Source: Arenicola marina (Eukaryota > Annelida > Polychaeta > Arenicolidae). From it: a DNA stretch of 64,000 bases. Of this stretch, positions 5,341 to 62,315 are shown piece after piece. Each line of letters begins with the position of its first letter. Within the stretch, counting starts at the first letter, position 1. Position numbers and translations under genes: made by a program. The notes below the pieces were generated by a model. It did not search any database and was not told the origin of the DNA. It worked only from the letters and a program-made list of their open reading frames with translations. The stretch lies in assembly GCA_964019135.1 (NCBI GenBank), contig OZ025248.1:18917574-18981573 (forward strand). The letters are read 5' to 3'.

Positions 5341-5495
5341 TCACCCACCCACACCATTTCTTTTGATGTGGTATAGAACGCATATACTGAAATCTATGAA
5401 GTCGCTATACCTTGATCCATGATGACGCCTTGATTCGTAATGATTATCAATTATTACATTATTAATAGTGATTGTTATCGCAGTTATCTGGCATT

Positions 5496-10232: not shown

Positions 10233-13200
10233 ATTTTTTTTTTAATTTTTTTTTTATTTCCATAATCGTACAGCAAGTTGTGACATCAGGCAGACAGAAT
10301 ATATGTTATATTGTTAAGAATATACAACTGTGCAAGAGAGGGATCATGCTAGAAGAGGGATGACCGGTTTCCATTTTCTTAGAAATATTGTCTCGCTACG
10401 GTATCGTTCTGTTATTCCAAATTTTTCTATATCGTAATAATATTTAATATAATTTATCAAGCCACAGAGAACAGGGGTAACCTGAGCCCATTTACACTGA
10501 TAGATATATTTTTTTCCAATGATAATTATATGGTTAAGCAGGCGAGAAAACGGCGCGGTTGTCACTCCTAACATCACAGTCTGAGCCGAAATGAATGTGC
10601 CAATGTCTTCTTCAGTGAGATTTCTAAACAAAGCTATAAATTCTGACCATAATGACCACTGGTTGACAATAATAAAATAGATGTTCTATCGTCTCACACT
10701 CGTTACCGCAAAAGCCACACATATCAGAGTTAACTATTTTACTCATGTATAAGAACTTATTCGTTACGGTTGTTCTGTGTAAAATCATAAACTGAAAACT
10801 TCTCGTTCTCTCATCCGTAGTGGCGTTCACCGGTAATTTATATAATGTTTTCCATGTATCCCTTTCTATTTGTACACCTAAAATATCTGACCATTTACGC
10901 TCATTATTCCGCCCGTATGTCAGTGATTTAACTAATGTTTTATAAGTTTCGTTGCACACACGCTTCATCTGCTTTATATGATTCGTAAATTTACAAACAA
11001 CTGATTTTAGCTTTATACCTCCTCTTAACATTTCATATTTCCATTCTCTGGGAATAGAATGGATCAGCCCGTAGAAATCCGCAAAATTTATGCGGATATC
11101 AAACTTTATGCAAAAATCATTCCAGCCCATGAACTCCCCTTGTTCGTTAATAACATCATTAGCAAAAACTATACCTTTCTTGATAAATTCGGTCTTTCTA
11201 CATGTAACATTTTCATTAGTCATAAAATAAGTATTCCACAAAGGATACTCCAACACATTACGGGTAATCTCAATATCCTTGCTCACTTGCCGGTAGCAGT
11301 ACCAGGAATTAAAAACATCAGCCCAAAATGGGTTTTCTACCTTAATAAAATTTCTTAATGAATGCAAATCTAATTCCCAACAATGTACTTTTTCACCACA
11401 AATAGTATCACAGAACAAATCTTGCCATGCTCCATCTTGCCGGATAAGTTTTTGAATCCAAGTCAATTTCAAAGCTTGCAACATGGATTTTGTATGCGTA
11501 AGGTTAACGCCCCCCTCTTCTATTGACTGGGCCATTCTATTTAAAGAGAGCTTAGGTTTTTTCTTGTTCCAAACAAAATTTCGAATGGCACCGTCAATTT
11601 TGTCTAGATAACGCTTTTCCGGCATAGGTAGAGCAGACATCACATGTATCAATTTCGGCAAGGCAAAAGTTTTTACTACTGTGACCCGACCACGGAGCGA
11701 AAGCCTTCGTTTACTGTATGCATTCAATATCTTTTCAAATTCGGCAATTTTGGACTCATAATTTATCATTACCATCTTTTTTAAGTCAACATGAAAACTT
11801 ATTCCTAACAACCGAAACTCCTTTACCCAAGTCAATGGCAAATCTGGACATATGTTCTGTTTTTCTTGTTCAAACTTCCCAAGCCATATAGCATTAGTTT
11901 TGTCAACATTAATTTTCAGTCCAGAGCAGTAATGGAAGGCCTTCAGTTTCCGTAAAGCATTTCTAACGGATGACTCACTACCATCTAATAAAAGAAACGT
12001 ATCATCCGCGTACTGTCCAATCTTATATTCTTTCTTTCCAACAATTATGCCCTTAATATTATTATCTTGCTTAATAGCCATTGCCAAAGGCTCAATGGAC
12101 AAAATAAATAAATATGGCGATAATGGGTCGCCCTGTCTACAGCCTCTTCCGAGAGCAAAAAACTGTGAAAAATTCCCATTATTAATGACACAACTCTCAG
12201 GACATCCATATAAAATATTGAACCACCTCATAAAAGATTCTCCGAAGCCATATGACCGTAATACTTGACGTATATAACTCCAACTTAACGTATCGAACGC
12301 TTTTTCAAAATCTATAAGCAGAAGCATACCAGATTTTCTATTCTGAATTAAATAGTGCATGATATCATAGATCAATCTAGTGTTTTCTCCTATAAATCTA
12401 TTTTGAATAAAACCTTTCTGATCCGAACTGATTATTTCCGGGAGCACATTTTTTAATCTGTGAGCGAAAATACCTGATAATATTTTATAATCAGCGTTAA
12501 GAAGAGAGATAGGGCGCCAATTCTTTAAATATTCTCGCGGCTTATCGCCCTTGGGCAAACAAGTTATAATCCCTTGTCGTTGAGTAATCGACAGAGAACC
12601 TGTTACATATGCATATCGAAGACTTCTAACCAAATAGACACCTATATCGGTCCAGAAAAATTTATAAAAATCAATAGGGAACCCATCACTTCCTGGCGAC
12701 TTGTTATTTTTCATGTTTTTAACTACTTGAAGTATTTCTCTGCTTTCGATATCGACATCACATAACTCCTTTAATGTATCATCGAGACATTTAATATTTT
12801 TATCGTTAAAAAAACCCGGCATTTGTTCCGATGCCTGGGCATAGTCACAGTTCGCATATAACTTCTCGTAATAACCCTTTTGTTCTTGAATTATTCTCTC
12901 CTGATCCAATATCAATTCTTTGCCAACAACTAGTTTATTTATAAGCTTGTTAACATAGTTACGCTTTTCAAGATTACAAAAATATTTGCTCGGCTTTTCT
13001 CCTTCTTCATAAAACTGTGACCTTGCCCTCAAAATGATTCCCTTGATTTTTGGCAGTCTCAATTTCTCTAGCTTCGCTTTTAGAATTTCCAACTCACTAT
13101 AGTCACCGGTACTAGATTCTTCAAGCTGCTGAATTCTCAGCTCCAGCGACTTTTCTTCTTTTAATTCAATCTTCTTCTTATAACTGGAATAGCTGATTGT

Positions 13201-13742
13201 ACTACCTCGTATCTCCATTTTTAACATTTCGAAAAACATTTGGTCATTAATAGTAAGGTTAACAATTTCCCGTTTTGAACAGTCACCGGAGCTACTATAC
13301 ATATCAACAGTTTTCGCGATACATGCCTTCACCAGCTTTACATAGTCAACGTCTCGCAATAAAGATGTATTAAATTTCCAGAAGCCTTTACCCCTCTCCG
13401 CTAAATAAAAATCTAAATCAATTGTAACCAAAGAGTGATCTGTTCTATATCCTGGCTTTATGTCGGCGCCTTTCATCATTGCATGAATATCCGCAGTTAC
13501 TAAATAAAAATCTAATCTAGCGCGTTGTGATTTGCGCTGCGAGTTGGTCCAAGTGAAGCGTCTCATGTTCGGGTGATTCACACGCCAGCAATCTAACAAT
13601 TCTAACCTTTCTATTAAATTCAATACAGTTCTCTTCGCTTTAACGTTATTTTCTCTGACATAACCCCGCGTATCACATTTATAGTCCAGCACCAAGTTCC
13701 AATCTCCACATATGATAATGCTCGTATTCTCAAGTTTGTCTA
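10233..13742 (-). mobile_element. L1/Tx1-type LINE, 5'-truncated
   Basis: The element is read on the minus strand and ends in an A-rich tail (plus-strand T runs at 10233-10255) directly after an AATAAA-like signal. It keeps the C-terminal part of the APE-type endonuclease, the full reverse transcriptase and the C-terminal cysteine region, but the 5'UTR, ORF1 and the N-terminal endonuclease are missing; homology to the neighbouring LINE stops near 13742. The main frame is open for over 1000 codons, which suggests a fairly recent insertion. No convincing target duplication could be found. Confidence 0.93.
10344..13736 (-). pseudogene. LINE ORF2: endonuclease C-part and reverse transcriptase
   Basis: The long frame 13695-10624 carries, in order: endonuclease end (ICGDWNLVLDY just upstream of it; YRTDHSLV about residue 87), RT motifs NNKSPGSDGFP, NWRPISLLNADYKI, DQKGFIQNRFIGENTR, LLIDFEKAFDTLSW, GCRQGDPLSPYLF and the catalytic GQYADDTFLLL, then a thumb region and a terminal CGFCGNECETIEHLFYYC cysteine/histidine motif. 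Such proteins nick target DNA and reverse-transcribe the element's RNA at the nick. The first conserved residues lie upstream of any ATG, as expected from 5' truncation. Near 10660-10675 a one-base frameshift separates the frame from its natural C-terminus (about WSEFIALFRN onward, ending at 10344). RT catalytic residues are intact. Confidence 0.92.
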
Positions 13743-13887
13743 TTTTCTATATAAAAATTATAAATTTTATAGCTTTTTTTATAATTTTTTTTTTTTTTAT
13801 ATTTTATTTCCCAAACGGTACATGAGTCACATTCAAAGTCATTTAATAGTATGTTTTATACACAATAATCTTACATACATTATATAA

Positions 13888-16800
13888 TCACCTGCTTGAC
13901 AGAGCAAGCTCTCGGGGTTTCCATTTTCCCTCTACTTGCACTTTTAATCTTGGCGATAGATGTTTTTCAAGCTCGTATGTGAATTTAATACAGGCGATGG
14001 CTTCAGAGAAACTTGGCATGGTATCGCGATATTTCACACTTTGATCTCCCAGTAAAACTGATTTTTTAGACAAATTTAATCGTACACATTCCGTACTGCG
14101 GCTTAACCATCTATCTATTGCGATCCACAGCGATCTCACACTCTCGCAGTCATAAAATAAATGTTCTAGTGTTTCGCATGACATTTTACAAAAAGTACAC
14201 AGAACTGTTTCGCTAAGTTTACACATGAATAAGAATTTATTGGTGGGTAGTATTCTATGCAATATTTTAAATTGAAAACTTCTACTTCTCTCATTTGTAG
14301 TTATTTTATAAGGTAGGGTGTAATACTTGTCCATTCTTCTGCATCAATTGTAGTGCTGAGCTGCTCTGACCATTTCGTTTCATTATTTCTATTGTAGCTC
14401 AGCGACTCAGCAAAAATTCTATAAACCCTTTTAAAAAGTATTGGAGACTCATACAATATTTTCATACAAACACTTGTAACTTTTGGCATATGCGGGTCCC
14501 ATTCTTTGATATTGCGTCTCCATTCGCGTGGAATACAATGAATTAAGCTGTAGAAGTCGGCAAAAGATAATATTCAGACTATACTTCAAAATAAAATCTT
14601 GGAAACGCATAAAATTGCCATCTTCATTAGTTAAGTCTATTACACGCGTAACACCTTTCTCTGTGAACTCCTTCTCCCTGCAAGTTAAGTTGGAATTTGT
14701 TAAGAAATATGTATGCCATATAGGTCGATACAGAACACAATCATCTTTCAGACAGCCGGTCTGTTTTTCTAAATTCTTGCCATGAGGCTACAACATCTAT
14801 CCAGAAACGGTTATAGGTGGGCGCGAAGGCCTCACTTGATTTCGAATCAAGCTCCCAGCAGGACTTATAGGTAAAACATATAGTATCTCTAAATAAACTC
14901 TGCCAAGCACCCTCCTGCGTAATCAATCTCTTTATCCATGTTATATTTATAGCCTTTAAAAAAGAAGTAAAGTGAGTCAGTTTGACACCACCGCAGTTAA
15001 AGTCCTGAGCCATCCGATTTAACGTTACCTTGGGCCTTTTTCCACCTCAGATAAAAGTGCGAACAGCTTTGTTTATACGCTCGATATACGGGCGGTCAGA
15101 GTTGGGTAGAACTGATGCAACATGGATCAGCTTAGGCAAAGCCAACGTCTTAACTACCGTGACCCTACCCGTCAGAGACAACTGGCGTTTACTGTATATT
15201 CTTAAAGTATTTTCAAATTCAGCGATTTTCTGCCAATAATTTACTGTGATCATTTTATCTAGGTCGGTGTCAAAGTAAATAGCTAACAATATAAAATTGC
15301 TGACCCAAGATAACTTCATTTCGTCGTGGCTTTCTCGATACCCCGTGGGCGAGGGGCTCAATAGCTAAAATGAACAGGTACGGGGAAAGAGGATCTCCCT
15401 GTCGACAGCCTCGTCTAATGCTAAAACAGTCGGACAAAAAAACGTTATTAATGACACGGCTGGTTGGGTCATTGTATAACACTTCGTACCATTTAATAAA
15501 AGTCTCGCCGAAATTATATTCACGTAGTACCCTTGCGATATATGTCCCGCTGAGCGTATCGAACGCTTTCTCGAAGTCGATCAGAAGGATTGCCCCCGAT
15601 TTTTTATTAAATATTAAGTATTGCATGATGTCGAAAACCAGCCGTGTATTTTCACCGATATATCTTCCCTTCAAGAAACCTTTTTGATCTGGTCTTATTA
15701 TATCTACCAATATATGTTTCATACGTTTTGCTAGTATACCAGAAAACAGTTTTAGGTCTGCGTTTAATAGCGAAATTGGGGGCCAATTGCTTAAAAACTC
15801 TCTAGGTTTGTCCCCCTTTGGCAAACACGTAATAATTCCTTGCTTCTGCACAGTCGATAAAGAGCCAGTATGAAGGGCATATTGTATACTTTTATACATA
15901 TACATACCAATATCTTTCCAGAAGAATTTGTAGATTTCTGCTGGGAAACCGTCGCTGCCTGGAGATTTATTGTTTTTCATCGATTGTAGGACTTCTGCTG
16001 TCTTATTCATACTCATATCCTTGTCACATAACTGTCGTTGCTCTGCTGAGAGCCGTTTAATATTACGATTGGTCAAAAAATTGTCCATACATTCCCCCTG
16101 TTTAATATAGTTCGCGCTGGAGTAGAGGTTCTCATAAAATCGTTTTGGCTCTTTTAATACCTCTTCTGGTCTCACGATATCCTTCCCCTCGACATTAACC
16201 CTAGTTACCAGTTTATTTACATAATTTCTTTTCTCCAGACTGCAAAAAAATGTACTGGGTTTCTCACCATCTTCGTAGAACTGAGCTTTGGATCTTAAAA
16301 AAATACCCCTAGCTTTAGGAAGCCTAAGTGTCTCGAGCTGTACTTTCAAGTCGTCGATTTCATTATCTATGTTACATGAGACAGTGCTTTGAGCTCTGTC
16401 TCTACTCTCTTCTAATGTAGCGATGTCATTTTCTAACCTTCTTTCAAGCCCATCGCGCATTTTCTTTTTATAACTGCAGTATGATATTGTTCGCCCCCGA
16501 ATTTCTAATTTAATCATCTCAAACAACAGTTGATCATTAATACTGAAAGCTATGTTATTGCTGTCCGACGGGTTAATTTTTTATTGTTCTACGACCGTGC
16601 TTATAGACTGTCTCACCACCTGAGCATATTCCAGGTCTCCGAGTAAAGAGGTGTTAAATTTCCATACTCCCTTACCGCGCTCTGCCGCATATACATCAAT
16701 TTCAACACACACCAGTGAGTGATCCGTCCTGTAGCCGGGTTTGATATCGGCTTTGCTTAACATTGCATTTACATCAGTCGAAGTTAAGAAAAAATCCAGT

Positions 16801-40480: not shown

Positions 40481-43400
40481 ATGCCACCGCAGTTGCTCAA
40501 AAGCAAGGCAGACCATCCACGGTTGACGAGTTTGATTTAGAAGTGATTCGCCGGGAAAAATAATTAACAGGCTGCAGCGCGGAGAAATAGTGCAACTGTC
40601 CGGTTTGCGTGCCCAGCTGAGGCAGCACGATATGGACCTGTCCATATCCACCTTACGGCGAAGTTTAGACAGAATAGGATTGAAGTGAGTTTCCATGGTT
40701 GTTAATTTGTAGTTATGCCCCGACATAAAGCACATTATAATTTTGCATTAATGTATAAGATGTTTGAGAATATAAGAAGACATTATGGTGGTACATTATG
40801 ATGGTAACCCGAATGATAGATGCAAAGAGCAAAATTGTGGATTGTGCACAAACTCTTTGAGTATTTGCATGTCTCGAGTTATTTTTTGAGAAAGTACCTA
40901 CGCTAAAAGTAGTAGTTAATATATATCTAAATCTTAGGACTTTAAATTTTATACTTGTAATAGAATACTGTTCATATGGAAGAGAGCCGAGTTGCACAAT
41001 TTGATAAAAACATGGAGGGGTTGGGATGGGGACCACAGGGAGGATGTCCCATTAAAAAAGAACTTGCGAGGCATTATTCTGTGTTTTGATTCTGCTGATA
41101 TCTTCCTTGTATATGTCATTCAATAGTTGCAATGTGCGTTGAACTGTTTTACAGGTACCAGGGTGTCCAGGCTGGCGCCGACAAAGAGGTGCGGGAACGA
41201 GAGGATATCGTGGTGTGGCGTCGCCGCTACATGCGCCAGGTTGCCCAGTACCGGGAGCAGGGCCGACCCCTGGTTTACACAGATGAAACATGGGTGAACG
41301 CGGGCCACGCCCCAACAAAGGAGTGGTGTGCACCAGGGGTTGTGCGGAAAAAGAAGCGCGTCAGCGGCAAGGGCGGAAGGTATGTTAATTATGACATCAG
41401 CCACAACCGATTATTTAAACGAATGCGACAAGCACAGAGTATACGACAAACGCAGACAGGAGGACGGTAGGGGTGGGGGGATGAGAGAGAGACCTACAAC
41501 TACTAATAATAATGCACTGCCCCCCCCCCCCCCCCTTGGCTGTCCTCCATTCTGTGTATAAACAATATAAACAAACTGCTACCTACCATTCAGTACCTAA
41601 AACACATTGCGCTTCGTAACAACCCACACTAAATGGCATTACAGGATTACGTGGCATTCTCTCCCTCAGGTGGATTGTCACTGATGCCGGCGGCGAGGCT
41701 GGGTTTATCGAAGGTGCCACCTTGATAGTCAGGTAACGGAAATTTATACGTTCGTTGCAAATAAGTTTCGTATTATTCTATGATTTGGCATAGTCTGTGA
41801 TACCAGACCAGCAAACCTCGAATACTGAACAGATTATTTTAAAAAAATGGGGCTCATATTAATTAATTCGAACATATTTAACGGCATGAAATCCTGTATG
41901 AAGCATACTTTACTCTGGCATTGCACTGGTCCGTTGCTACAGAGCTCAAAGCGGTACCGGGGACTACCATTGCGAAATGGACGGTCCCCGGTACGAGGCC
42001 TGGTTTAAGGACCAACTCCTTCCTGCACTACCACCAGCAAGCGGTGTGGTGCTGGATAACGCACCCTACCACAACGTACAGACCGAAGAATCTAAGTCGC
42101 CTTCATCCGGGTCCCGAAAAGAGGACATCCGTACTTGGCTTGAGACAAAAGGTTAGCAATTAAGAGAATCCAAAATGGTTTGGTCTTGAACTCTGCAAGG
42201 TAATACCAGAACTGCTAGCTCACTTTGGATTTGTAAGATTGAATTTGAACAGTTATCAATTTGTTCATTACTAAGGTAATACACTTGATCGTCTTTTATG
42301 TAAATTAATTAGCGCGCACTTACGTTGAGAAGGCACGTTTATATTTGAGATGAACCCTCTCCCTGTTTGTTTCATCATGCATCCGTATAAATAAGGTGAT
42401 GTCTCATATTTGTATAAGAATAGATTACCATGGCAAAGTGACGAGGAAGCCTATTTATTATCTTAATATAACTGTTAAATTGGCATATGTTTACATATTG
42501 ATTGCTTTGTTTTTTGCGATGAGTTCGAACTTTAATTGTCTGGTTATTTCGTAGGGGTGGCGTTCAGCGACGACATGCTCAAAGCGGAGCTGTTGCAGCT
42601 GGTCGCCCAACACCGCCCGGCAAAGAAGTTCCGGGTGGACGTGCTTGCCGAGGAGGCCGGCCACGCGGTCCTTCGTCTGCCGCCCTACCACTGCGAGTTC
42701 AACCCCATCGAGATGGTGTGGGCGGTGGAGAAGGGCCACGTGGCATCCCTTAACGTCACACAGACGATGGCGGACGTGCGGGCCCTGTTCCTCGCTGGAA
42801 GGGAGAAGGTGGCCGACCGCAACATGTGGCCAGCCTTTGTACGGCATTGTCGTAAAATTGAGGACCGGTAAGGGTGTCAAAGAGCAAGAATATATCGAAT
42901 ATTATGTAATTGCTTTTTATGAGTTCAAGAAAAACAGTAAATGAAAAAACGTTCATTTATTAAATATTTTTAGTTTCCCAGCTTACTTTTAAGTTTTTTA
43001 CTTGTACATCTTTATGTCTTACTTTGAATGAGAGTGAAAGTCTGAGCCATACATGCGGTCTCATTATTCGAATCCTATCCAATCAAAATTTCACACCAAC
43101 CCCGGGAGTGGAGGGGGGGGCACTGTTATACAAATCTGGCGGGGGGGGGGGGGGTTCTTCGGGTGCCCATTAATGCCTGAGTGAGCGGACATTTATCATT
43201 TACGATGAAAAAGATACCCCTACAGAGCTGATATTTTAAAACTTGCAACCGAAGGGAGGGTGGGGGGTGGGGAACTTAGAAAATTGTGTGTGTGCACAGA
43301 GCGTTAACCGAGCGGGTATGCGTGGAACGGCGACATACCAAAATATTATCATTTTATTATGGCCATTTGTCTTGTTCTCAGTTACTGGAACTTGGACGGT

Positions 43401-44497
43401 ATCCGAGATGCCGAGGGCGTAGCCCCCGTGGGCGTTGACCTCTCGCAAGAGATGGAGGTGGAGGAAGCGGCCGTGGATGGAGGGGAGGTGGCGCTCGGTG
43501 GTGAGGGGGACGAGGCGGACGTGGTGACAGATGCCGGTGACGACGAGCCGCGTTACCTATGCGCGGCGTGTGGTGGGATCTGGGGGAACCAGGGGGCAGA
43601 GACTTGGTTCGGATGTGACACATGCGACTCCTGGTGGCACGAGCAGTGTCTGGACAGGTATTCAATAATGTTTGCAGAACAAAATAATCTTTTACATGAA
43701 ACCAGTGGTAACACTGAAAAGTATAAGAATTTAACGCTGCTATTGTACACATGTGTAGAAGGGAGGTTATAACTATAAAGCACTGGTGCTGCAGAAATCC
43801 TATAGAATGTGTCCTGTAGAGAAAATGTTAAAAACACTTTAAATGTAAAAAGGATATTATAATTTAAACCTGCAATTTTTAGACAACGGTAAAAGCTTTA
43901 TATATATTCTATATTTTCTATAGAGACGCCATTTACATGTCCAAACAAATCCTATAGAACAGTACGTGTTCTACAACAATTCTGTAGAAAAGTGTGCTAT
44001 AGAAATTCTGTAAAATGTTTGTGTCCTATAGAGACGCTATACTGATATGCACCTATAGAAATACTATAGAACACTACACGCTACATAGAAATTCTACAGA
44101 ATGGTTGTGTCCTATAGAGACACCGTAAAGACACCTATAGAATGATCATAGAACACGGTATGCTCTATAGATTTTCTTTCTCATTATAAGTTATGTGAGA
44201 CATGTTAGCAGGGATATGTAGCTGTGGGTCTACAATGTTTATTTCTAATTTTCATTTCACATACGCAAATACTTTATCCACCACCATTGCGTGTTTGTAA
44301 CGTGGCATTAAAGAATTTGCACTTATGAGCTATTGACGAAAATTTTCTTGCGTCGTTTCGGTCTTTCATTGGACCGGGTACATGCATCGCTCGCCGAAGG
44401 CAACCAGGATTGGTTGTGCGAGCTGTGTTTGGTGCGGCGCCTCCAGGCCGGCGACACATCCGTGCTGCCAGAGATATTGAACCGCCCGGAAGAATAG
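40481..44497 (+). CDS. Multi-exon DDE transposase-like protein with C-terminal PHD finger
   Basis: Exons read from GT/AG, phase and family similarity: 40481-40684, 41155-41379, 41670-41732, 41943-42151, 42555-42867, 43382-43657, and a last one ending at 44497. The first encodes a helix-turn-helix-like region (QGRPSTVDEFDLEVIRREK, then STLRRSLDRIGLKY). The DDE domain has LVYTDETWVNAGH, GVVLDNAPYHN and PPYHCEFNPIEMVWAVEK, which supply the three acidic residues. About 83-84 residues separate the second D from the E, far more than the usual 34-39 of Tc1/mariner. An acidic linker leads to a PHD finger. All junction phases agree from exon 2 to exon 6, and exons are GC-rich while introns are AT-rich. 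One A is missing in an A tract near 40560 (frameshift), and the last acceptor is uncertain. The N-terminal exon was not found. It is either an intron-bearing transposon or, more likely in my view, a domesticated host gene; function unknown. Confidence 0.78.
43382..43657 (+). CDS. Exon with acidic linker and PHD finger (first six zinc ligands)
   Basis: The exon joins IEDR to YWNLDGIRDAEG, runs through an Asp/Glu/Gly-rich linker of about 55 residues, and then gives YLCAACGGIWGN and WFGCDTCDSWWHEQCLDR. These supply Cys-x2-Cys, Cys-x2-Cys and His-x2-Cys. The last pair, WLCELC, is encoded in the final exon (around 44420), completing a C4HC3 PHD finger. PHD fingers read histone H3 tails, so the protein may bind chromatin. 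The exon ends at AG|GTATTC. Confidence 0.82.
43880..44175. repeat. Intronic degenerate CCTATAGAGAC repeats
   Basis: Irregular copies of CTATAGAAATTCTRTA and TGTGTCCTATAGAGAC alternate in the last intron of the transposase-PHD gene. Confidence 0.65.
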
Positions 44498-52257: not shown

Positions 52258-55200
52258 TTAGTCCTGACTAGTGGCGTGAAGCTCAATCTCCTCGTCAGTC
52301 CTAGCGACTTCCGGTAAGGTTTCGGACAGGTTATTTCGAGGGACAAAACTGTATTGGTCGCCACCGCTCTGGTGGCTGCCGTTGGTTGTGACGTCACGAC
52401 CGGTCTGATGGCCGCCATTAGTCGTGACGTCACTAGCACCAGTGGACGAGCGGCCCACGTGACCAGTTTCCTGCTCGCGCGAGGTCGACAAGGGCGTCGT
52501 GCACGTGACCTCGTCCTGGAGGTCACCGCACTCGTGTGCGGAAGTCATCAGGGTCATATCGGTTTCAAAATTACTTGGTGAGGTGATGTCCCCGTTCATG
52601 GCGGCCAGGGACGTGAAGCGACCGCTCTGTCGACCGAAGAACGGCCGCGGGCCCGTCCCCTTGGCCCCCTGGCGGACGTTTTTGTGGGGCTGGAAGAGGA
52701 CGATGTAGACCTTGGGGACGAAGAGGCAGCCGAGGATGACGGTGGCGCTGATACTGACGCACATGCACAGCGTCGTGATCTGTATCTGTGGAGGAAGGTA
52801 AACACGGCAGCGAGATTAGGGACCACGTGGCCATGTCATCCGGTCATAACCACAAATGATAAAGCAACATATATTTGTCTTTTCCGTTTTTCTGCAGAAA
52901 TATTTGGAATGCAGTGCCGTGTTTTAATGAGCAGGACGTAACTATCAGACTGGTTGTGTCTTATTCGTAAATGCTTCATACAAAATAACGATCCATAGTA
53001 ATTGCAGTTATTTTATCCCCCACAAATGGCTGTATGAAGAGGACACCCTATCACTAGTGCCGAAGCGGATGGGAATCAGTGCCAGCCAGACGATACTCAC
53101 CTTAAAATCACTCATGTTAGTGCCGAAGTAGGTGGGAATCAGTGCCAGCCAGACGATACTTACCCTAAAATCACTCATGTTAGTGCGGAAGTAGATGAGA
53201 ATCAGTACCAGCCAGACAATACTTACCCTAAAATCACTCATGTTAGTGCGGAAGTCGATGGGAATCAGTACCAGCCAGACGATACTTACCCTAAAATCAC
53301 TCATGTTAATGCGGAAGTAGATGGGAATCAGTACCAGCCAGACGATAATTACCCTAAAATCACTCATGTTAGTGCCGAAGTAGATGGGAATCAGTGCCAG
53401 CCAGACGGTACTTACCCTAAAATCACTCATGTTAATGCGGAAGTAGATGGGAATCAGTACTAGCCAGACGATACTTACCCTAAAATCACTCATGTTAGTG
53501 CCGAAGTAGATGGAAATCAGTGCCAGCCAGACGGTACTTACCCTAAAATCACTCATGTTAGTGCAAAAGTAGATGGGAATCAGTGCCAGCCAGACAATAC
53601 TTACCCTAAAATCACTCATGTTAGTGCCGAAGCAGATGGGAATCAGTACTAGCCAGACGATACTTACCCTAAAATCACTCATGTTAGTGCTGAAGTAGAT
53701 GGGAATCAGTGCCAGCCAGACGATACTTACCCTAAAATCACTCATGTTAATGCCGAAGTAGATGGGAATCAGTACCAGCCAGACGGTACTTACCCTAAAA
53801 TCACTCATGTTAGTGCAAAAGTAGATGGGAATCAGTGCCAGCCAGACGATACTTACCCTAAAATCACTCATGTTAGTGCCGAAGTAGATGGGAATCAGTA
53901 CTAGCCAGACGATACTTACCCTAAAATCACTCATGTTAGTGCTGAAGTAGATGGGAATCAGTGCCAGCCAGACGATACTTACCCTAAAATCACTCATGTT
54001 AATGCCGAAGTAGATGGGAATCAGTGCCAGCCAGACGGTACTTACCCTAAAATCACTCATGTTAGTGCAAAAGTAGATGGGAATCAGTGCCAGCCAGACG
54101 ATACTTACCCTAAAATCACTCATGTTAGTGCCGAAGTAGATGGGAATCAGTACTAGCCAGACGATACTTACCCTAAAATCACTCATGTTAGTGCTGAAGT
54201 AGATGGGAATCAGTGCCAGCCAGACGATACTTACCCTAAAATCACTCATGTTAGTGCCGAAATAGATAGGAATCAGTGCCAGCCAGACGATGCAGGTGGA
54301 GTACATGGTGAATGCTATGTATTTGGCCTCGTTAAAGTTCTCCGGGATCTTGCGAGTCTTGAAGGCGTACACTGTACACATGATGATGAGCACCATGTTG
54401 TAGAGCAGGGAGACGACCACCGCCACGTTGGTGCTCTTGCACCGCAGCACCACCGTCCGGGGGTCCGGGTAGACCAGCGCCACGTCCGGCAGGTCCATGC
54501 CCACCCACGTGATCGCTCCGATGATCTGCACGGACACGAGGCAGAAGCAGATGACGAGCTGGGAGCGCGGACTGGTGTAGCTCGGCCGCTTCACCATGGC
54601 CTTCACCCCGCGGTTGAAGATTCGCGATATCCGGTTAGTCTTGGTGAACATGGAGGCGAAGCAGATGGAGAGGGAGAGACCCAGGCCGATCCGCATGAAG
54701 CAGCAGGACACGAAGCTGGGCCTGGCGACCATGATGAAGGTCATGGTGTAGGACATGAGGAGGCCGCCCATGAGGACGAAGCAGAGCTCGCGGCCCGAGG
54801 CCATGATGACCGGGGTCCGGTTGTACTTGAGGAACACGGCGAAGATGAAGAGCGTCAGCAGGATGCCGACCGACGCGAAGACGACGGGCACGATGGCCCA
54901 GGGACTGTCCATCGTCAGGTACTGGATGGGCAGGTCGTGGCAGTGGGTCTTGTTGGGGTTGGGGAAGGTGCCGTTCCTGCAGGCCTCGCACGTGTTCTCG
55001 TCCTTGAGGATCTCGTGGGGCTGGCACTGGATGCAGACCCAGCAGCAGCTGTCCAGTGCCTCGTTCTTCTGCATGATGTGGCCTGACGCGCAGGGCTCGC
55101 TGCACACGGACCGCGGCATGGCCAGCGAGTTGTTCTTCCACCGGGTCATCGTCAGGTTGATGAAGAAGCTGCGAAGAACACAGCACCGCAAGGGTTTGAT

Positions 55201-58200
55201 AAGACACACCGAAGGGAGCATTTCACGCAAAACCAACATCAGATGTCCAGTCGTTGTCTACAGCAATAGCGATAGCAATAATGTGGTCCACCGCAGCTCT
55301 ATCAGAGTATCATTGATGTAATGTTACCAGTAGGTCTGAATTACATATAGCCGTAAACTTGAGGATTATCAATTGCGGTGGACAACATGTAATACAAAGA
55401 AAACCAGGTAACCCGGTAGTCAGCACATCTAGCTGTCAGTCTGGTAATTCATTTCGGTAGACATGTTCCAATGTAATTCGGTAGACATGTCCCTCTGTCA
55501 GGAGGTTGGACTGACCTGTCTGACCAGGTTCCCATGGGGACTGACCTGTCTGACCAGGTTTATATGGGGACTGACCTGTCTGACCAGGTTTATATGGGGA
55601 CTGACCTGTCTGACCAGGTTCCCATGGGGACTGACCTGTCTGACCAGGTTTATATGGGGACTTACCTGTCTCACCAGGTTTATATGGGGACTGACCTGTC
55701 TGGCCAGGTTCCTATGGGGACTGACCTGTCTGACCAGGTTTATATGGGGACTGACCTGTCTGACCAGGTTTATATGGGGACTGACCTGTCTGACCAGGTT
55801 TATATGGGGACTGACCTGTCTGACCAGGTTTCTATAGAGACTGACCTGTCTGACCAGGTTTCTATGGAGACTGACCTGTCTGACCAGGTTTCTATGGAGA
55901 CTGACCTGTCTGACCAGGTTACTATGGGGACTGACCTGTCTGACCAGGTTCCTATGGGGACATAGTCGTAGGATCCGTCGTCATCCTTCTGGTACTGGTA
56001 GATGGTGTAGCGCCCCATGGCGTCACCATCCTCATTGAACTTGACGGTGTGACCGGCCGCTCCTGTCGGGTAACCATAGATACTGCATAAACATACATCC
56101 ATTCACGACAGTGAAACGACACAGACAACATGCAAATCATTATAATCAAGTTGACGACACGGATTTCGATCGATCATCATCTGTTTTGCATATTATTTAG
56201 ACTGGCAATGAAGTTTTATATGCATTAAACTTAAGATGCATAATATATTTTACATATACACGTGACGTGACACAAGATCGAATCCACTATTTACGAAACC
56301 AAATGACCTTCTTGTATTATACGTGGTAAAGAAGAACCACTTGCATACATTATTGAGTGCATGGCTGGAAATGGGCCACGTCTCAAATTATACATCTTTC
56401 TGCTTCCTATGTCAATATGAATCAAACGGTCAGAATACACATGCAGACATGCAGGGGAAGCCGGGGAATTACACGCCGATCATCATAAGATACTTCCTCA
56501 ACATGGTTTGAGACGCTCCAGGACGAGGCTTCATATCCGCCCCGAAGACACGGTATGGTACTTAGCGTTGAGGAACTGCCTTATTATTTTATATTTTACA
56601 TAATATTGATGTGATGACGTATATCAATGGACGTAAACTTGGTGTTTTGACGGAAGAGGCCCCTGTACCACTAGGAGATGCCATTATCTTCAGGCGGCAG
56701 GACTGCGGCACTCAGCGTCCAATGCATCCCTTGCCGCGATGGACCGCAGTTCACGTGGTCACCCCTAGATACGGATTGTACAGTGTGGTGTACCCCATGG
56801 TCGGCTGCAGCACGTGTCCGACCTTCGGGGCAAAGATCATTATTCATCCGCAGCGTCCTGGTTTTATCGCTGATGAAAACTTTGAAGCGCCTAATGGCCA
56901 CATCAGCTGTGCAACACACGCACTCGGGACAAACCTTCTTCTATCGCCCGTGGATTCGGCTTCGGGACATGAGATAACGAAGTGACAAACAATTTTTGTC
57001 GGTGCAAATTTGTCTTGATTTTTGGAAGGGACTGAGGGGAGAGAGAGGGAGGGCGACAGAGGAGAAAATGAAAGAGAATGAGAGAAACGGGAAAGGAGTG
57101 CGGGAAAGAAACATACAGAGAGAGAGATAGAGAGGCAAGCTCCCCGCACGGTGGCGCTAGGCAAGCTAGCTTTTACCGCTGCTGTCGGCCGGGGGCAAAT
57201 TTCAAGAATCTTGAAAAATTGTCAAATCAGCTGTAATTTCGTAAAAACATTATACTTTTGAAGAATAAAACATAAAAATAACGAGCTCTGTGTATTTACA
57301 GCAAAAAACATCTTGTACCCTTTCGAAAAAGTTATAATTGTGGCAGAACTCACCCGATTTCATGTGTTGTTAGGCTTAGACTAGGTCCCAGCACTAACTT
57401 GCACAAATGCGCGACGCATTTTTCCTATCAGTTTGCGCAGCGCCGCCCTGGCGAGCGGATGTGAAAACGCATTGAGGACGTAGGCGACAACAGAGATATA
57501 ATGGAGCTGTAGCGGAGTGAGTCGAAGGTAGAGAGTGATAGAGAGGGTGGAGTGGGAACGCGCATGCGTGGTTTACCACCTCCATGGCCTTGTTGTTCTC
57601 TGCACAACCTAATGAGGTGTTGTGATCTTTTTTCGGGTGTTGCATCGAAGACCAGGAACCACTTGTGGTCACTTCATGTACAAGGAATCTTCGAAGACGG
57701 AGAATATGGCGACGCACTAACAGCTACCGCCTATCTACTGTAACGTTATCACAGCTAATGAACGTATTATTTGGGGCAAGAGACAAATACAAATTTTCTG
57801 GAACCAAAATGTGGCTCGATACTCAACCAAAGACCGTAGTGATCGACGCACTGCCGAGATCCACACGAGGCCATGTCTCCCTTGATCCACACGAGATCAT
57901 GTCTCCCTTGATCCACACGAGGCCATGTCTCCCTTGATCTACAGGCCATGTCTCCCTTGATCCACGAGGTCATGTATCCCTTGATCTACAGGCCATGTCT
58001 CCCTTGATCCACGAGGCCATGTATCCCTTGATCTACAAGAGGCCATGTCCCCTTGATCAACACGAGGTCATGTCTCCCTTGATCCACACGAGGCCATGTC
58101 TCCCTTGATCCACACGAGGCCATGTCCCTCTTGATCCACACGAGGTCATGTCTCCCTTGATCTACCCGAGGCCATGTCTTCCTTGATCCCCACCAGGCCA

Positions 58201-61200
58201 TGTCTCCCTTGATACCCACCAGGCCATGCCTCCCTTGATCCACATGAGGCCATGTCCCCCTTGATCCACACGAGGCCATGCCTCCCTTGATCCTCACGAG
58301 GTCATGTCTCCCTTGATCTACCCGAGGCCATGTCTTCCTTGATCCCCACCAGGCCATGTCTCCCTTGATACCCACCAGGCCATGTCTCCCTTGATCCACA
58401 TGAGGCCATGTCCCCCTTGATCCACACGAGGCCATGCCTCCCTTGATCCTCACGAGGCCATGTCTCCCATAATCAACACGAGGTCATGTCTCCCTTGATC
58501 CCCACGAGGCCATGTCTCCCTTGATCCACACGAGGCCATGTCTCCCTTGATCCACATGAGGCCATGTCCCCCTTGATCCCCACGAGGCCATGCCTCCCTT
58601 GATCCAGACGAGGCCATGTCTCCCTTGATCCACATGAGGCCATGTTCCCCTTGATCCACATGAGGCCATGTCTCCCTTGATCCAGATAAGGCCATGTCTC
58701 CCTTGATCCAGATGTGTCCAATCTTGATGCCGTTCAGGTCATGACGGCCTTAACCAACTTGCGGCAATCCTAGCCTCGCCCCCGGTGATGTGATCAGAAC
58801 CGTGACTCCCTTGCGGTCAGCCCAGACCTTGCCAAGATTAAGTCCCACGTATAAATAATCTACGGTGTGCAGAAATGAGGGATAGGTAACCACAATGATC
58901 GTTTAGACTACGTATCGCATGATTTAGATTCCACTGCTTCAGAAAAATCAAACACGCACAAGAAGCTGGGATCTAATATTCACTATTTTACAATAATGTC
59001 AAATTACGGTACATAACAGTTCTAACTACATGGTATTATTCTATGGAACGCCTACATTTGATAGAAAGCCGTAAATGTGGGATCACGAGACTTGAGAAAT
59101 TATCATTGGGGAAGACATCTGTAGACTAGTATAGTGAGTTAAGGGTTGAAGCTGGTTAATTGGGTAGAGGGGGCGGGGCGGGGGAGTGGGTGTTAGAGTG
59201 GGTAAGAGAATAACGAAAACACGGGTCTCCCCGACCACGTGGCTCTCTCACGACACACTAACCAGTGAAGGTGACCTTGCGGATTTGGCGTAGGAGGTCG
59301 GGACCCGCGACCGGGAGCATGTTTGGGCAGACCCCGCCGGGCGGGGGGCTGCCCGGGGGGTCACCACACTTCTCCCGGTGTAGCTGTTCGATGGCGTGTG
59401 CCAGGGCGAACACCGCATCGACGACGAATGGAACCAGCCCTTCTTGTTTGTAGCCTGACTGGGGCCCCACGAGCTCATGGCCTGATGGCGGGGGTAGAAG
59501 GTGGGAAGGGGGGAGGGGGTGAGTGCGACGGAGGGGCAGGGGCGGTAAAAACCATGGAAACGTGAGGACGAGGTTAGATTGGTGTTTGCGCGAGCGATAA
59601 TGAGTGAAGTTGAGGGGCTTCATGGGCGTGGCAGCAGGAGACGTGGAACAACATGTCGTGGCAGGTGCGGCGCCAACATGGACAGGATTGCACATAAATA
59701 AACAAGTGATGTATAGCACCTCAGGTTTGACATAAACTGTTAAATTGTCTTTTGTCCTGTGTCAGTTCTTCAGCTCTTCTTAACTGTTAACTGTTTTAAC
59801 TGGATGCGCTCAAAGCATTTTCAAAATAAAACAAAAATATCAATTTTGTAATTAATACACGTGAATACCTTATTATGACTGCACTCCCGTTGTGATGATG
59901 AATCAATTTCTAATTTCCACAGGGAAGGTGCCCCCCCTCGTCTACTATCCATGTCAAACCTTGTGCATACATACAGTGCTGTTTATAGCCAGTCAGAGCC
60001 GCAGTAGGGGACCACCAATGTCAGAGTCATGGGCTCGGTCCGACTGGGCTCAACAGCGCTGTGACTCAACAGCCACGCATTTGCTTTTCATTTGAGACAA
60101 TAGACTACCGTTCACCGTTCACCGTTCTGATGAATGTATTCCAATAGTGGGCCGACTTGAGCAGTCGGTTGCTTTGTGGTAAGGTTATTATTATTATCAA
60201 AATAAAATTATCGACCGAAAGGAGAATTTGGTACTGCCAGTGTGGCGTCATTTACGTTAGTATTGTTTCAACAAATGAAGCAGCAAATGCGGCTGAGCAC
60301 ACATGTAAACACAGCGATTGAACCGCCACTCTGAAGACAACGAAAATACATGCGAAATGACCTTAAATGTAACGTTACATGGCATAGGAATACGCCATAT
60401 ACACAGGTAACGTAACATGGGCTGCAGCACCTCCGTTGTTACAGCGGCACAGCCATGTTAACAAACCTACCATAGTGAAAATATACAACGATTCATGCAT
60501 TGGAAAATGCGGTACAAGAGCTGGAAGAAAAGAGAAAGTCCCGAGGTTTGTGGAGTGTAGCGTGGTCAGTGCAACACATTACCAGCGGCACTGAATGAAC
60601 AACAGCGATCTCAGGCTGTCGGAATATTTCAACAGATCGTCCCTGAAGCACTAATCTCAAAATCATGTTCATTTGCAATTGTGTTTAGTTATTTAGTGTT
60701 ATTGAATAAGATTAATTATTAGAACGAGCCGAAATATAATTTCCGACATGGAATTTCGTTTCCGTTGATCATGTTGCGATGTTCTACCCATAGGCGGCGC
60801 TAATGCATGCCTTACGGCTATCTTAAGTTATTTATAGATCAGATGACGATCTCTTGAAACACCAGCCCAGGATCGATAAGAAACAACAAACACAAACTTC
60901 AGATCCAGGAAAATCCCGTCAGTCGACATGCATCCAGACAGAAAACCAACCGACCGACGGGATTTTCAAGGATCGTTACATTGAGGTGAAGCGGTGAGAA
61001 CAGATCCCGGCTGATCCAGAGCCGTCAGGACGCCGGGACGCGCCGCTCCGCGCTCGCCACTAACCAGTAAACGAGACGTTTCGGATGTACTGCAGGAGCA
61101 GGGGTCCGGCGGGGGGGTTAGCGCTGGGGCACAGGCGACCGTCGCGACACTCAGCGGCGATGAGATTGTGAAGCGCATGCGCCATGGCGTACACTGCATC

Positions 61201-62315
61201 CACCACGAAGGGGACGACACCCTCCTGTTGGTACTTGGGCTTCGTGACTCGCTCCCTGCCTTCAGGGGGTAAAGGGTCACACGGACAAGCCATTATTCGG
61301 GGAACGTTTTAATATGAGGTGCGGGGAAAAAATGAATGAATAAATAAAATGAGGAATTTCTAAGTGAAGTTTCCGCTGAAGACTGGGTGCAAAGGAGTGT
61401 ATAGGGGGCGGAGAGGGGGTGGGGGGGGGGGGTGCTCATATCTTAGTAGACACAGGACCTGAAATTTCGCTTTGAATCAAACAAGCTGCGCGGCGTCTTA
61501 TGAAGGAGGCCTTTAAAGGAAGGTTGTTTATAAGGCTAAAGGTTAGGTCAATGAAAGGATCCCTACAACTTAGGGCACCTGCCCGGGGCACCCTCAGGGA
61601 CGCTGGGGAGGGGGGAGGCGGCGGGCTGGAGGGGATGGGAGGGGGGGGGAGGTGGCGGGGTGCATGGCTGAAGGGTGGGGGTATGATGGTGCTATACGAG
61701 GCGCGCATAAATGAAGCTAAATGTGAGGGCGGCACCTTTCACTGTGGAGCGAAGACTACTAATGGGCACGTCACATCATTCACATTGCAAGGGGAGAAGG
61801 AATGGCTGAAGAAGGCACAGTCGGCGTCTCCCAATAGAGGGCGCGGCCTTGTTAGGTCCATCCCTCAGGACTAGATGGGCAGCGCCCTCTTCTTGCCGAT
61901 GGGTAACCATGGTAACAGGGCAAAGACGGCTCGCACAGCGCAAGACAGGCTTGTAACCACGATAACATTAATTAACGATTGATATAAACCATGAAATAAA
62001 TATCTTCACTGCTACGAGTCTAATTCAAGTGAGTTGGAATTGCAGAATATTTTTATTAAAGATACCAACGGACTAAATCGTTTAGTAAATATTTGTCATT
62101 CTGTGTATAGTATCGTGACATATATATATATATATATCACAGTTATGAGTATACATTGACTGTTTTCTGTACCATGAGTGACAACTTACCTGTGCAGATG
62201 GGCTTGTGACCGCCCGTGTCGAAGGAACAGTCGAAGTGACTCTCCCAGAACTCTCGGAACCAGGGATTTCGCTCGTTGTTTCCCGGATTGAGACTCATGA
62301 AGTAATCGTCAAAGT
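52258..62315 (-). CDS. Class C GPCR, metabotropic glutamate receptor-like (3' part of gene)
   Basis: Exons in transcript order: 62315-62190, 61259-61065 (A), 59454-59263 (B), 56062-55936, 55168-54235, 52785-52258 (TGA). All junction phases agree (1, 1, 1, 2, 0). The first exons encode the end of the Venus-flytrap domain (DFDDYFMSLNP, VDAVYAMAHAL, GRYTIYQYQKDDDG). Exon 55168-54235 holds a nine-cysteine domain (VCSEPC, SCCWVC, TCEACR), then TM1-TM6 with SGRELCFVLMGG, FTKTNRISRIF, FKTRKIPENFNEAKYIAFTM. The last exon has TM7 (CLFVPKVYIVLFQPHKNVR) and a ~130-residue tail. Such receptors are dimers that sense amino acids and signal through G proteins at the cell surface. Subgroup is uncertain: IYQYQ and TKTNRI are group III-like, SDFRIQITTLC is group II-like. 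5' exons lie beyond the window. Two exon-end minisatellites and a duplicated exon are described separately. Confidence 0.93.
53040..54234 (-). repeat. 63-bp minisatellite made of exon end plus 5' splice site
   Basis: Starting at the exon end 54235, a 63-bp unit is repeated with perfect register. Each unit is six intron bases (GTAAGT) followed by a copy of the last 57 exon bases, ending again in TTTTAGG|GTAAGT. Donors sit every 63 bp from 54234 to 53100: 19 in all, of which 17 read GTAAGT, one GTAATT and one GTGAGT. Each unit is 21 codons without a stop (VSIVWLALIPIYFGTNMSDF plus R), so the frame runs through the array and stops only at 53008. The intron continues to the acceptor at 52786. Confidence 0.95.
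55508..55935 (-). repeat. 30-bp minisatellite made of exon end plus 5' splice site
   Basis: From the exon end at 55936 a 30-bp unit recurs 15 times. Each copy has six intron bases (GTCAGT) followed by a copy of the last 24 exon bases, ending ACCTGGTCAGACAG|GTCAGT. Donors lie every 30 bp from 55935 down to 55515; one unit (55661) has GTAAGT instead. In the exon's frame the nearest copies are open (VTWSDRSVSI-type decapeptides), but units with ATATAA add a stop further in. Confidence 0.95.
56063..57132. other. Receptor intron, no exon seen
   Basis: AT-rich intron sequence with a few open frames (for example near 56611-56985 on the plus strand) that match no family known to me. A purine-rich GAGAGA stretch lies at 57037-57132. 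Confidence 0.5.
57133..57540 (-). repeat. Dispersed repeat copy, partner of 34760-35185
   Basis: Inverted relative to the 34.8-kb copy and clearly homologous over about 400 bp. It is inserted in the receptor intron. No target duplication or coding capacity could be defined. Confidence 0.8.
57855..58712. repeat. 26-bp intronic minisatellite, ~33 units
   Basis: The unit is CATGTCTCCCTTGATCCACACGAGGC-like (26 bp, core CCTTGATCCACACGAGGCCA), with variants TCTACAGG and CCCACCAGG. It lies in the intron between exon B and exon 56062-55936 but does not contain either exon's splice junction. Long open frames on the minus strand follow from the repeat and are not genes. Confidence 0.9.
58713..59262. 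other. Receptor intron, no feature
   Basis: No repeat or exon recognised between the 26-bp array and exon B apart from a G-rich run near 59165. Confidence 0.5.
59263..59454 (-). CDS. Receptor alternative exon B (192 bp)
   Basis: Acceptor CCCCAGTCAG|GC and donor TTCACTG|GTTAGT, phase 1 at both ends, identical in phase to exon A. It encodes GYKQEGLVPFVVDAVFALAH, a Pro/Gly-rich cysteine loop longer than in exon A, and LLRQIRKVTFTG. The same slot of the ligand domain is thus encoded twice. Mutually exclusive use is likely, because including both would duplicate ~64 residues in the folded domain, although the frame would stay open. Confidence 0.85.
59455..61064. other. Intron between alternative exons A and B
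   Basis: No additional exon copy is recognised. It contains a G-rich stretch (59485-59545) just upstream of exon B in transcript direction, which on the transcript is C-rich and adjoins the exon B acceptor. Confidence 0.5.
61065..61259 (-). CDS. Receptor alternative exon A (195 bp)
   Basis: Acceptor CCCCCTGAAG|GCAGG and donor TTTACTG|GTTAGT, phase 1 at both ends. It encodes QEGVVPFVVDAVYAMAHALH, a cysteine-containing loop (CRDGRLCP) and LLLQYIRNVSFTG of the ligand-binding domain. It is homologous to exon B at 59263-59454. Splicing to the next exon gives the continuous family sequence ...VSFTG-AAGHTVKFNEDGD. Confidence 0.85.
61260..62189. other. Receptor intron with G-rich low complexity
   Basis: No exon. 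G runs at 61400-61435 and 61600-61680; (TA)n at 62118-62136. Confidence 0.5.

What the first reader, a model, noticed from the sequence alone, without database searches (positions are those of the whole stretch)
53040..54290. Ladder of 19 in-phase 5' splice sites: exon end plus GTAAGT multiplied at a receptor TM6 exon
Seen: after the exon end at 54235 a 63-bp unit (57 exon bases + 6 intron bases) is repeated so that a consensus donor recurs every 63 bp, always in phase 0, with no stop in any unit. Known (from memory): minisatellites containing exon-intron junctions were described at amphioxus Adh. Inference: any donor in the ladder could join the TM7 exon, each step adding 21 residues that repeat the end of TM6 and its loop. 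Either the cell strictly uses the first donor, or a length-variable receptor family exists.
Basis: partly seen in the sequence, partly recalled or inferred. Interest (0 to 1): 0.88.

Follow-up and report, generated by a model that had tools for sequence, protein, structure and literature searches.

The report
Repeated splice sites in glutamate receptor
The end of a receptor exon with its splice signal is copied many times into the intron behind it, most likely a harmless DNA stutter of a kind already described in lancelets, and the same gene carries a second one.

Summary
On the minus strand a 63-bp unit (57 exon + 6 intron bases) runs from 54291 to 53032: the real exon end, 18 full copies, one decayed copy. 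Nineteen GT donors stand in one phase (17 GTAAGT, one GTAATT, one GTGAGT), with no stop. The gene is a metabotropic glutamate receptor. New here: the upstream exon ends in a second ladder, a 30-bp unit (55959-55510) with 15 donors, also in phase, but 7 of 14 copies carry an in-frame stop. The first-donor product aligns to solved mGluRs with no gap of a unit's size. Copies vary like unconstrained DNA: 3 silent to 12 replacing changes, and donor columns change about as often as the rest. The real exon differs from the array consensus by two silent changes only. This matches the "mirage" minisatellites reported at amphioxus Adh3, globin and PGBD5 genes, said not to disturb splicing. No transcript was seen. 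A length-variable receptor family is not excluded but has no support. Value: a natural test of how cells choose among identical donors, and of whether frame decides which ladders survive.

The parts
54235..55168 (-). Exon C: nine-cysteine domain and TM1-TM6 of a metabotropic glutamate receptor; authentic exon end at 54235, phase 0
   Evidence: Pfam 7tm_3 E 3.8e-63 and NCD3G E 2e-12; exon bounds; PDB mGluR match
54229..54291 (-). Unit 0: 57 authentic exon bases plus GTAAGT of the intron
53095..54228 (-). Units 1-18: complete 63-bp copies, each with a GT donor in phase 0 (unit 14 GTAATT, unit 18 GTGAGT, the rest GTAAGT); four-unit higher-order repeat in units 1-12
53032..53094 (-). Unit 19: degenerate last copy, about 9 bases lost, donor decayed (GTGTCC)
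   Evidence: donor score
52786..54234 (-). Intron of 1449 bases between exon C and exon D; most of it is the array
52258..52785 (-). Exon D: TM7 and C-terminal tail (end taken from the open frame), acceptor CCTCCACAG|ATACAG
   Evidence: PDB alignment
55936..56062 (-). Exon B: end of the ligand-binding domain (GAAGHTVKFNEDGDAMGRY...YVPIGTWSD), donor at 55936|55935, phase 2
   Evidence: alignment to mGluR7
55930..55959 (-). Unit 0 of the second ladder: 24 exon bases plus GTCAGT
55510..55929 (-). Units 1-14 of the second ladder (30 bp each): 13 CAG|GTCAGT and one CAG|GTAAGT; in-frame TAA in 7 of 14 copies (units 5,6,7,9,10,12,13)

Best explanation
Both ladders are mirage-type minisatellites. A tandem duplication carried the exon tail together with a complete donor, and it grew by slippage or unequal exchange. 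Because the unit carries an intact donor, the first copy still ends the exon correctly, so everything behind it became intron and now evolves as passenger DNA. The cell most likely splices mainly at the first donor of each ladder (54235 and 55936). Shown: the arrays, their register, phase and unconstrained-looking variation, and the fit of the first-donor product to the family. Inferred: the founding mechanism, actual donor use, and why the first donor wins (upstream exon context, or being transcribed first).
For: Array anatomy. The first-donor product aligns to mGluR7 through both ladder junctions and to mGluR2 through the TM6 one with no gap of a unit's size (products of other donors were not aligned). 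Among 15 distinct exon-part variants in units 1-18, 3 are silent and 12 replacing; the silent fraction expected with no constraint is 0.22-0.28. The authentic exon differs from the array consensus at 2 sites, both silent. The donor 9-mer columns hold 3 of 17 distinct variants (9 of 63 columns, about 2.4 expected) in the 63-bp array and 1 of 9 (9 of 30 columns, 2.7 expected) in the 30-bp one (counted by hand), so there is no sign that selection holds the donors. The four-unit higher-order repeat (shuffled-order p 0.0006; units 1, 5, 9 identical) and the decayed last unit fit recent expansion. In-frame stops have spread through 7 of 14 copies of the sister array. Published mirages are said to leave splicing regular (PMC3087553, section 16 read; PMC3902484, passages).
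Against: No transcript could be examined. Predicted RNA accessibility of the donor is alike in all 19 units (0.001-0.039, first donor 0.007), and downstream donors are mostly equal and in unit 18 stronger, so nothing local singles out the first donor. In units 1-17 a run of 23 columns (39-61) is invariant (permutation p 0.038, uncorrected), a weak hint of constraint that fades with unit 18 included (17 columns, p 0.088). The two silent differences of the real exon are only suggestive (p 0.05-0.08). The RT-PCR result in PMC3087553 for BflGb6 concerns copies on the acceptor side; the donor-side evidence is the Adh3 paper, which I could not read.
Confidence: 0.85

Rival explanations
1. The ladder is a working device: downstream donors are used often enough to make receptors with one or more extra 21-residue TM6-loop repeats.
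For: Each of the five donor choices translated (0, 1, 2, 5 and 18 added units) gives an open frame through TM7 to the same C-terminus; all 19 positions keep GT and 17 the same 9-mer.
Against: Changes inside the copies show no protein constraint; donor columns are not specially conserved; each step would add half a membrane helix plus a loop to a conserved bundle (inference); the sister ladder truncates the product from its sixth donor on.
Confidence: 0.06
2. The unit number is wrong: the array is real but expanded, collapsed or mis-assembled.
For: The window holds 200 N, and PMC3087553 says that one mirage was wrongly assembled in a genome draft (passages). A four-unit higher-order repeat could be an assembly doubling.
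Against: Units 10, 12, 14, 16, 17 and 18 carry private variants, and a second, different ladder exists in the same gene.
Confidence: 0.06
3. Each unit works as a 62-nt mini-intron (donor GTAAGT, branch-like ACTAAC, acceptor TTTTAG), and the array is removed by recursive steps.
For: Of units 1-18, 14 hold ACTAAC and 17 hold TTTTAGG, and 18 of 18 hold a GT donor. In units 1-17 the least variable stretch (columns 39-61) runs from inside ACTAAC into the donor.
Against: Each step would leave one extra G and shift the frame (from the sequence); the C of ACTAAC (column 38) varies; the U run is short; no acceptor score was computed.
Confidence: 0.02
4. The ladder is kept as a dense set of U1 docking sites that strengthens exon definition or guards against early polyadenylation.
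For: 18 strong donor-like sites in 1.26 kb.
Against: Donor columns vary about as much as other columns; no test of the function was possible.
Confidence: 0.02

Closest known systems
Mirage minisatellites of amphioxus (Adh3, globins BflGb6 and BflGb9; PMC3087553, passages and section 16 read)
   Same: Tandem repeats that span an exon-intron boundary and copy the splice signal; inner units homogenised, edge units divergent; the authentic boundary gives the normal product.
   Different: Here 19 and 15 donors, all in phase with units of 63 and 30 bp, at two successive exons of one gene. The globin units described are 150-160 bp, 3 or 6 units at BflGb6 (acceptor side) and a duplicate at BflGb9. Transcripts and polymorphism are not tested here, and the species is not identified. 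The Adh3 paper itself was not held.
Lancelet PGBD5 tandem repeats (60 bp and 108 bp; PMC3902484, passages read)
   Same: Repeats at splice sites of two exons of one gene, units that are multiples of three.
   Different: Imperfect and fewer copies, 2 or 7 and 3 or 6 in two versions of the genome sequence; some were annotated as an extra exon; a different gene family.
Human variable internal tandem repeats, some at exon-intron boundaries (PMC2812944, passages read)
   Same: Minisatellite expansion at a boundary that can change which bases are exon or intron.
   Different: In genes of primate segmental duplications, about half in coding sequence; ladders of many identical donors were not among the passages that I saw.

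Membership tests
Mirage minisatellite (as described in PMC3087553) | Tandem repeat spanning an exon-intron boundary | tested here: met
   both arrays begin in the exon tail and include the donor; exon bounds rest on homology and splice signals, not on transcripts
Mirage minisatellite (as described in PMC3087553) | Many units carry AG/GT splice signals | tested here: met
   19 of 20 units (63 bp) have a donor-like GT, one of them the weak GTAATT; 15 of 15 units (30 bp) have CAG|GT
Mirage minisatellite (as described in PMC3087553) | Unit length within the reported 10-160 bp | tested here: met
   63 bp and 30 bp
Mirage minisatellite (as described in PMC3087553) | Concerted evolution of inner units, edge units excluded | tested here: met
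   63-bp array: four-unit higher-order repeat; unit 18 least like the rest (56-59 of 63) and unit 19 decayed
Mirage minisatellite (as described in PMC3087553) | Regular splicing at the authentic boundary shown by RT-PCR | not testable with these tools
   only indirect: first-donor product fits the family
Mirage minisatellite (as described in PMC3087553) | Germline length polymorphism and somatic instability | not testable with these tools
   one sequence only; exact-pattern scans of viral and prokaryote collections found no other copy, which says little
Mirage minisatellite (as described in PMC3087553) | Occurs in a cephalochordate | not testable with these tools
   no genome is held for the window; amphioxus is an inference from the phenomenon
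Metabotropic glutamate receptor | Class C seven-helix domain with nine-cysteine domain and ligand-binding domain | tested here: met
   Pfam 7tm_3 and NCD3G, ANF_receptor on two exon pieces, positions 272-327 of 353 only; PDB mGluR7 465.6 bits, mGluR2 442.3 bits. The rest of the ligand-binding domain was not sought with profiles and may lie outside the window

The most novel reading that the evidence does not exclude
In-phase donor ladders are a selected subset of mirages. Splicing leaks to downstream donors, so ladders whose unit is a multiple of three survive best, and the receptor is made as a minor ladder of length variants (+21 residues per step at TM6, +10 residues per step at the end of the ligand-binding domain up to the fifth donor), whose mix changes with the animal's own unit number.
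Probability: 0.1. Interest if true: 0.82.

Novelty: new member of a known kind. Interest (0 to 1): 0.5.

Why it matters
Two ladders of near-identical donors (19 and 15) in successive introns of one receptor gene form a natural experiment on 5' splice-site choice. Models in which the first-transcribed donor wins, and models in which simultaneous U1 occupancy favours the donor nearest the acceptor (both recalled, not read), predict opposite products here. Both units are multiples of three, like the 60- and 108-bp lancelet PGBD5 repeats (PMC3902484, passages), which suggests a genome-wide count: are boundary minisatellites enriched for 3n units? If so, downstream donors are probably used at a low level and filtered by frame. 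It also warns annotators, since gene callers may place such copies in exons, as happened at PGBD5.

Tried and rejected
Selection on the copies: tested by silent against replacing changes and by donor-column variability; no sign of constraint apart from the weak invariant run. Local RNA structure hiding downstream donors: not supported, accessibility is alike in all 19 units. Freedom from stops as a sign of function: rejected, and the sister array has stops. Other minisatellites as mirages: of the 12 arrays examined (TRF lists 34 overlapping rows), the 63-bp and 30-bp arrays are the only two that repeat a donor-like 9-mer scoring 8.5 or more in nearly every unit. The two 32-bp arrays at 1-2491 and 2600-5357 repeat a moderate one (GTGGTGGGT, score 6.9, above the A1/A2 donor) 72 and 82 times on the minus strand, and the 13-bp array at 7109-7183 has GAGGTGGGT (9.0) 4 times in 5.8 copies on the plus strand; no exon was sought at these, so they are not excluded. 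Other copies of the unit: none by exact pattern in viral contigs or genome contigs, which are not collections of animal genomes, so this says little. Literature: 11 searches sent, 9 ran, two failed on term syntax. The library lacks the Adh3 paper (PMC117041), PMC1783408 and the two U1-selection papers (PMC102138, PMC413636), so these are known only through citing papers or recall. One search found no paper with amphioxus, metabotropic glutamate, exon and tandem repeat together.

Full report
What is there. On the minus strand the exon that encodes the nine-cysteine domain and TM1-TM6 of a metabotropic glutamate receptor runs from 55168 to 54235 (Pfam 7tm_3 and NCD3G). Its last 57 bases plus the first six intron bases form a 63-bp unit that is repeated through most of the 1449-base intron. 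Unit 0 is the authentic exon end, units 1-18 are complete copies, and unit 19 is decayed. Nineteen GT donors stand in one phase: 17 AGG|GTAAGT, one AGG|GTAATT (unit 14), one AAG|GTGAGT (unit 18).

Is it more than chance. The minus strand of the window holds 26 sites scoring at least as high as AGG|GTAAGT, of which 18 lie in the 1.26-kb array (approximate recalled weights). The in-phase property alone is weak evidence: a random unit is a multiple of three about one time in three, the exon part is open by definition, and random changes seldom make a stop in this unit.

A second ladder. The exon just upstream (exon B, 56062-55936) ends in its own array: 24 exon bases plus GTCAGT, 30 bp, 15 units from 55959 to 55510, each with CAG|GT (14 GTCAGT, one GTAAGT), again in one phase. 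The exon where the unit starts and the intron that follows the last unit share GTCC, a four-base direct repeat that could have seeded slippage (read by eye). For the 63-bp array the bases just before unit 0 do not match the unit's end, and the original intron start is obscured by the decayed unit 19. In the 30-bp ladder 7 of 14 copies carry an in-frame TAA; translated products are open for donors 0-4 and stop early for donors 5-14. Of the four donors that I located in this gene (exons A1, A2, B, C), two lie in a ladder.

Which donor is used. The product joined from the first donor of both ladders (with exon A2) aligns to mGluR7 over query residues 2-467 (465.6 bits), with no gap at the B-C junction and two extra residues in mGluR7 near the TM6-TM7 junction. 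Near the latter mGluR2 has SDYR-VQTTT where this receptor has SDFR-IQITT, with one residue fewer just before it. These differ far less than the 21 residues of a unit. This is indirect: only the first-donor product was aligned, and no transcript was seen. The best solved relative is mGluR2 for the C-terminal part and mGluR7 with part of the ligand-binding domain added, so I call it group II/III-like and go no further.

How the copies evolve. Units 1, 5 and 9 are identical, and so are 2 and 6, and 3 and 7; identity peaks at a lag of four units (matrix; shuffled-order p 0.0006 for the best lag of 2-7 in units 1-18), a higher-order repeat that points to recent segmental expansion. Among 15 distinct exon-part variants in units 1-18, 3 are silent and 12 replacing, as expected with no protein constraint (expected silent fraction 0.22-0.28). 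The authentic exon differs from the array consensus only at two silent sites (chance 0.05-0.08 under no constraint). Donor columns hold 3 of 17 distinct variants in the 63-bp array and 1 of 9 in the 30-bp array, against about 2.4 and 2.7 expected. Against this, 23 adjacent columns (39-61) are invariant in units 1-17 (p 0.038, uncorrected; 17 columns and p 0.088 with unit 18). That stretch begins inside a branch-site-like ACTAAC, which 14 of units 1-18 keep, and runs into the donor. Predicted accessibility does not single out the first donor, and unit 18, the last full unit, has the strongest donor of the ladder.

Reading. The simplest account is a mirage minisatellite: tandem duplication of an exon tail together with a whole donor. 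Such a duplication is tolerated because the first copy keeps the exon's normal end, and the rest becomes intron. The literature describes this at amphioxus Adh3 and globin genes and calls it mirage, with regular splicing retained, length instability, and homogenised inner units (PMC3087553, section 16 read in full). Its BflGb6 example copies an acceptor-side boundary; the donor-side case is Adh3, whose paper was not available. Lancelet PGBD5 has 60- and 108-bp repeats at splice sites of two exons (PMC3902484, passages). The window's species is not known to me; amphioxus is an inference from the phenomenon.

What remains open. Why the first of 19 mostly identical donors should win is not explained by local sequence. 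Upstream exon context or order of transcription are the likely answers (inference). Both units here are multiples of three, as are the two PGBD5 repeats, while BflGb9's 157 bp is not. A frame filter, implying low-level use of downstream donors, is therefore a testable idea, not a result. A length-variable receptor family is possible in principle, since the donors translated at the TM6 ladder (0, 1, 2, 5 and 18 added units) all give open frames, but nothing supports it.

Noticed in passing
55510-55959 (minus strand): A second donor ladder (30-bp unit, 15 donors) at the end of the upstream exon of the same gene, with in-frame stops in 7 of 14 copies.
   Followed up: yes
61065-61259 and 59263-59481 (minus strand): Two versions of the same ligand-binding-domain exon (195 and 219 nt, same phase, both ending CTG|GTTAGT; both match ANF_receptor positions about 272-327); 72% identical over 54 nt at the donor end. 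Candidate duplicated, perhaps mutually exclusive, exons. The acceptor chosen for the first (GAAG) is a guess from the phase.
   Followed up: partly
57858-58710: A 26-bp minisatellite of 33 copies in the intron between exons A2 and B; no donor-like 9-mer recurs in a third of its units on the gene's strand.
   Followed up: partly
1-5357: Very long 32-bp minisatellites (about 78 and 86 copies) that repeat a moderate donor-like GTGGTGGGT on the minus strand 72 and 82 times; no exon was sought there.
   Followed up: no
10624-13746 and 15270-16580 (minus strand): Two frames with reverse transcriptase domains (RVT_1), probably LINE-like elements; the first is open over 1040 aa.
   Followed up: no
43308-43772 (plus strand): An open frame with a PHD-finger match just above Pfam's cut-off (25.8 bits against 24).
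   Followed up: no
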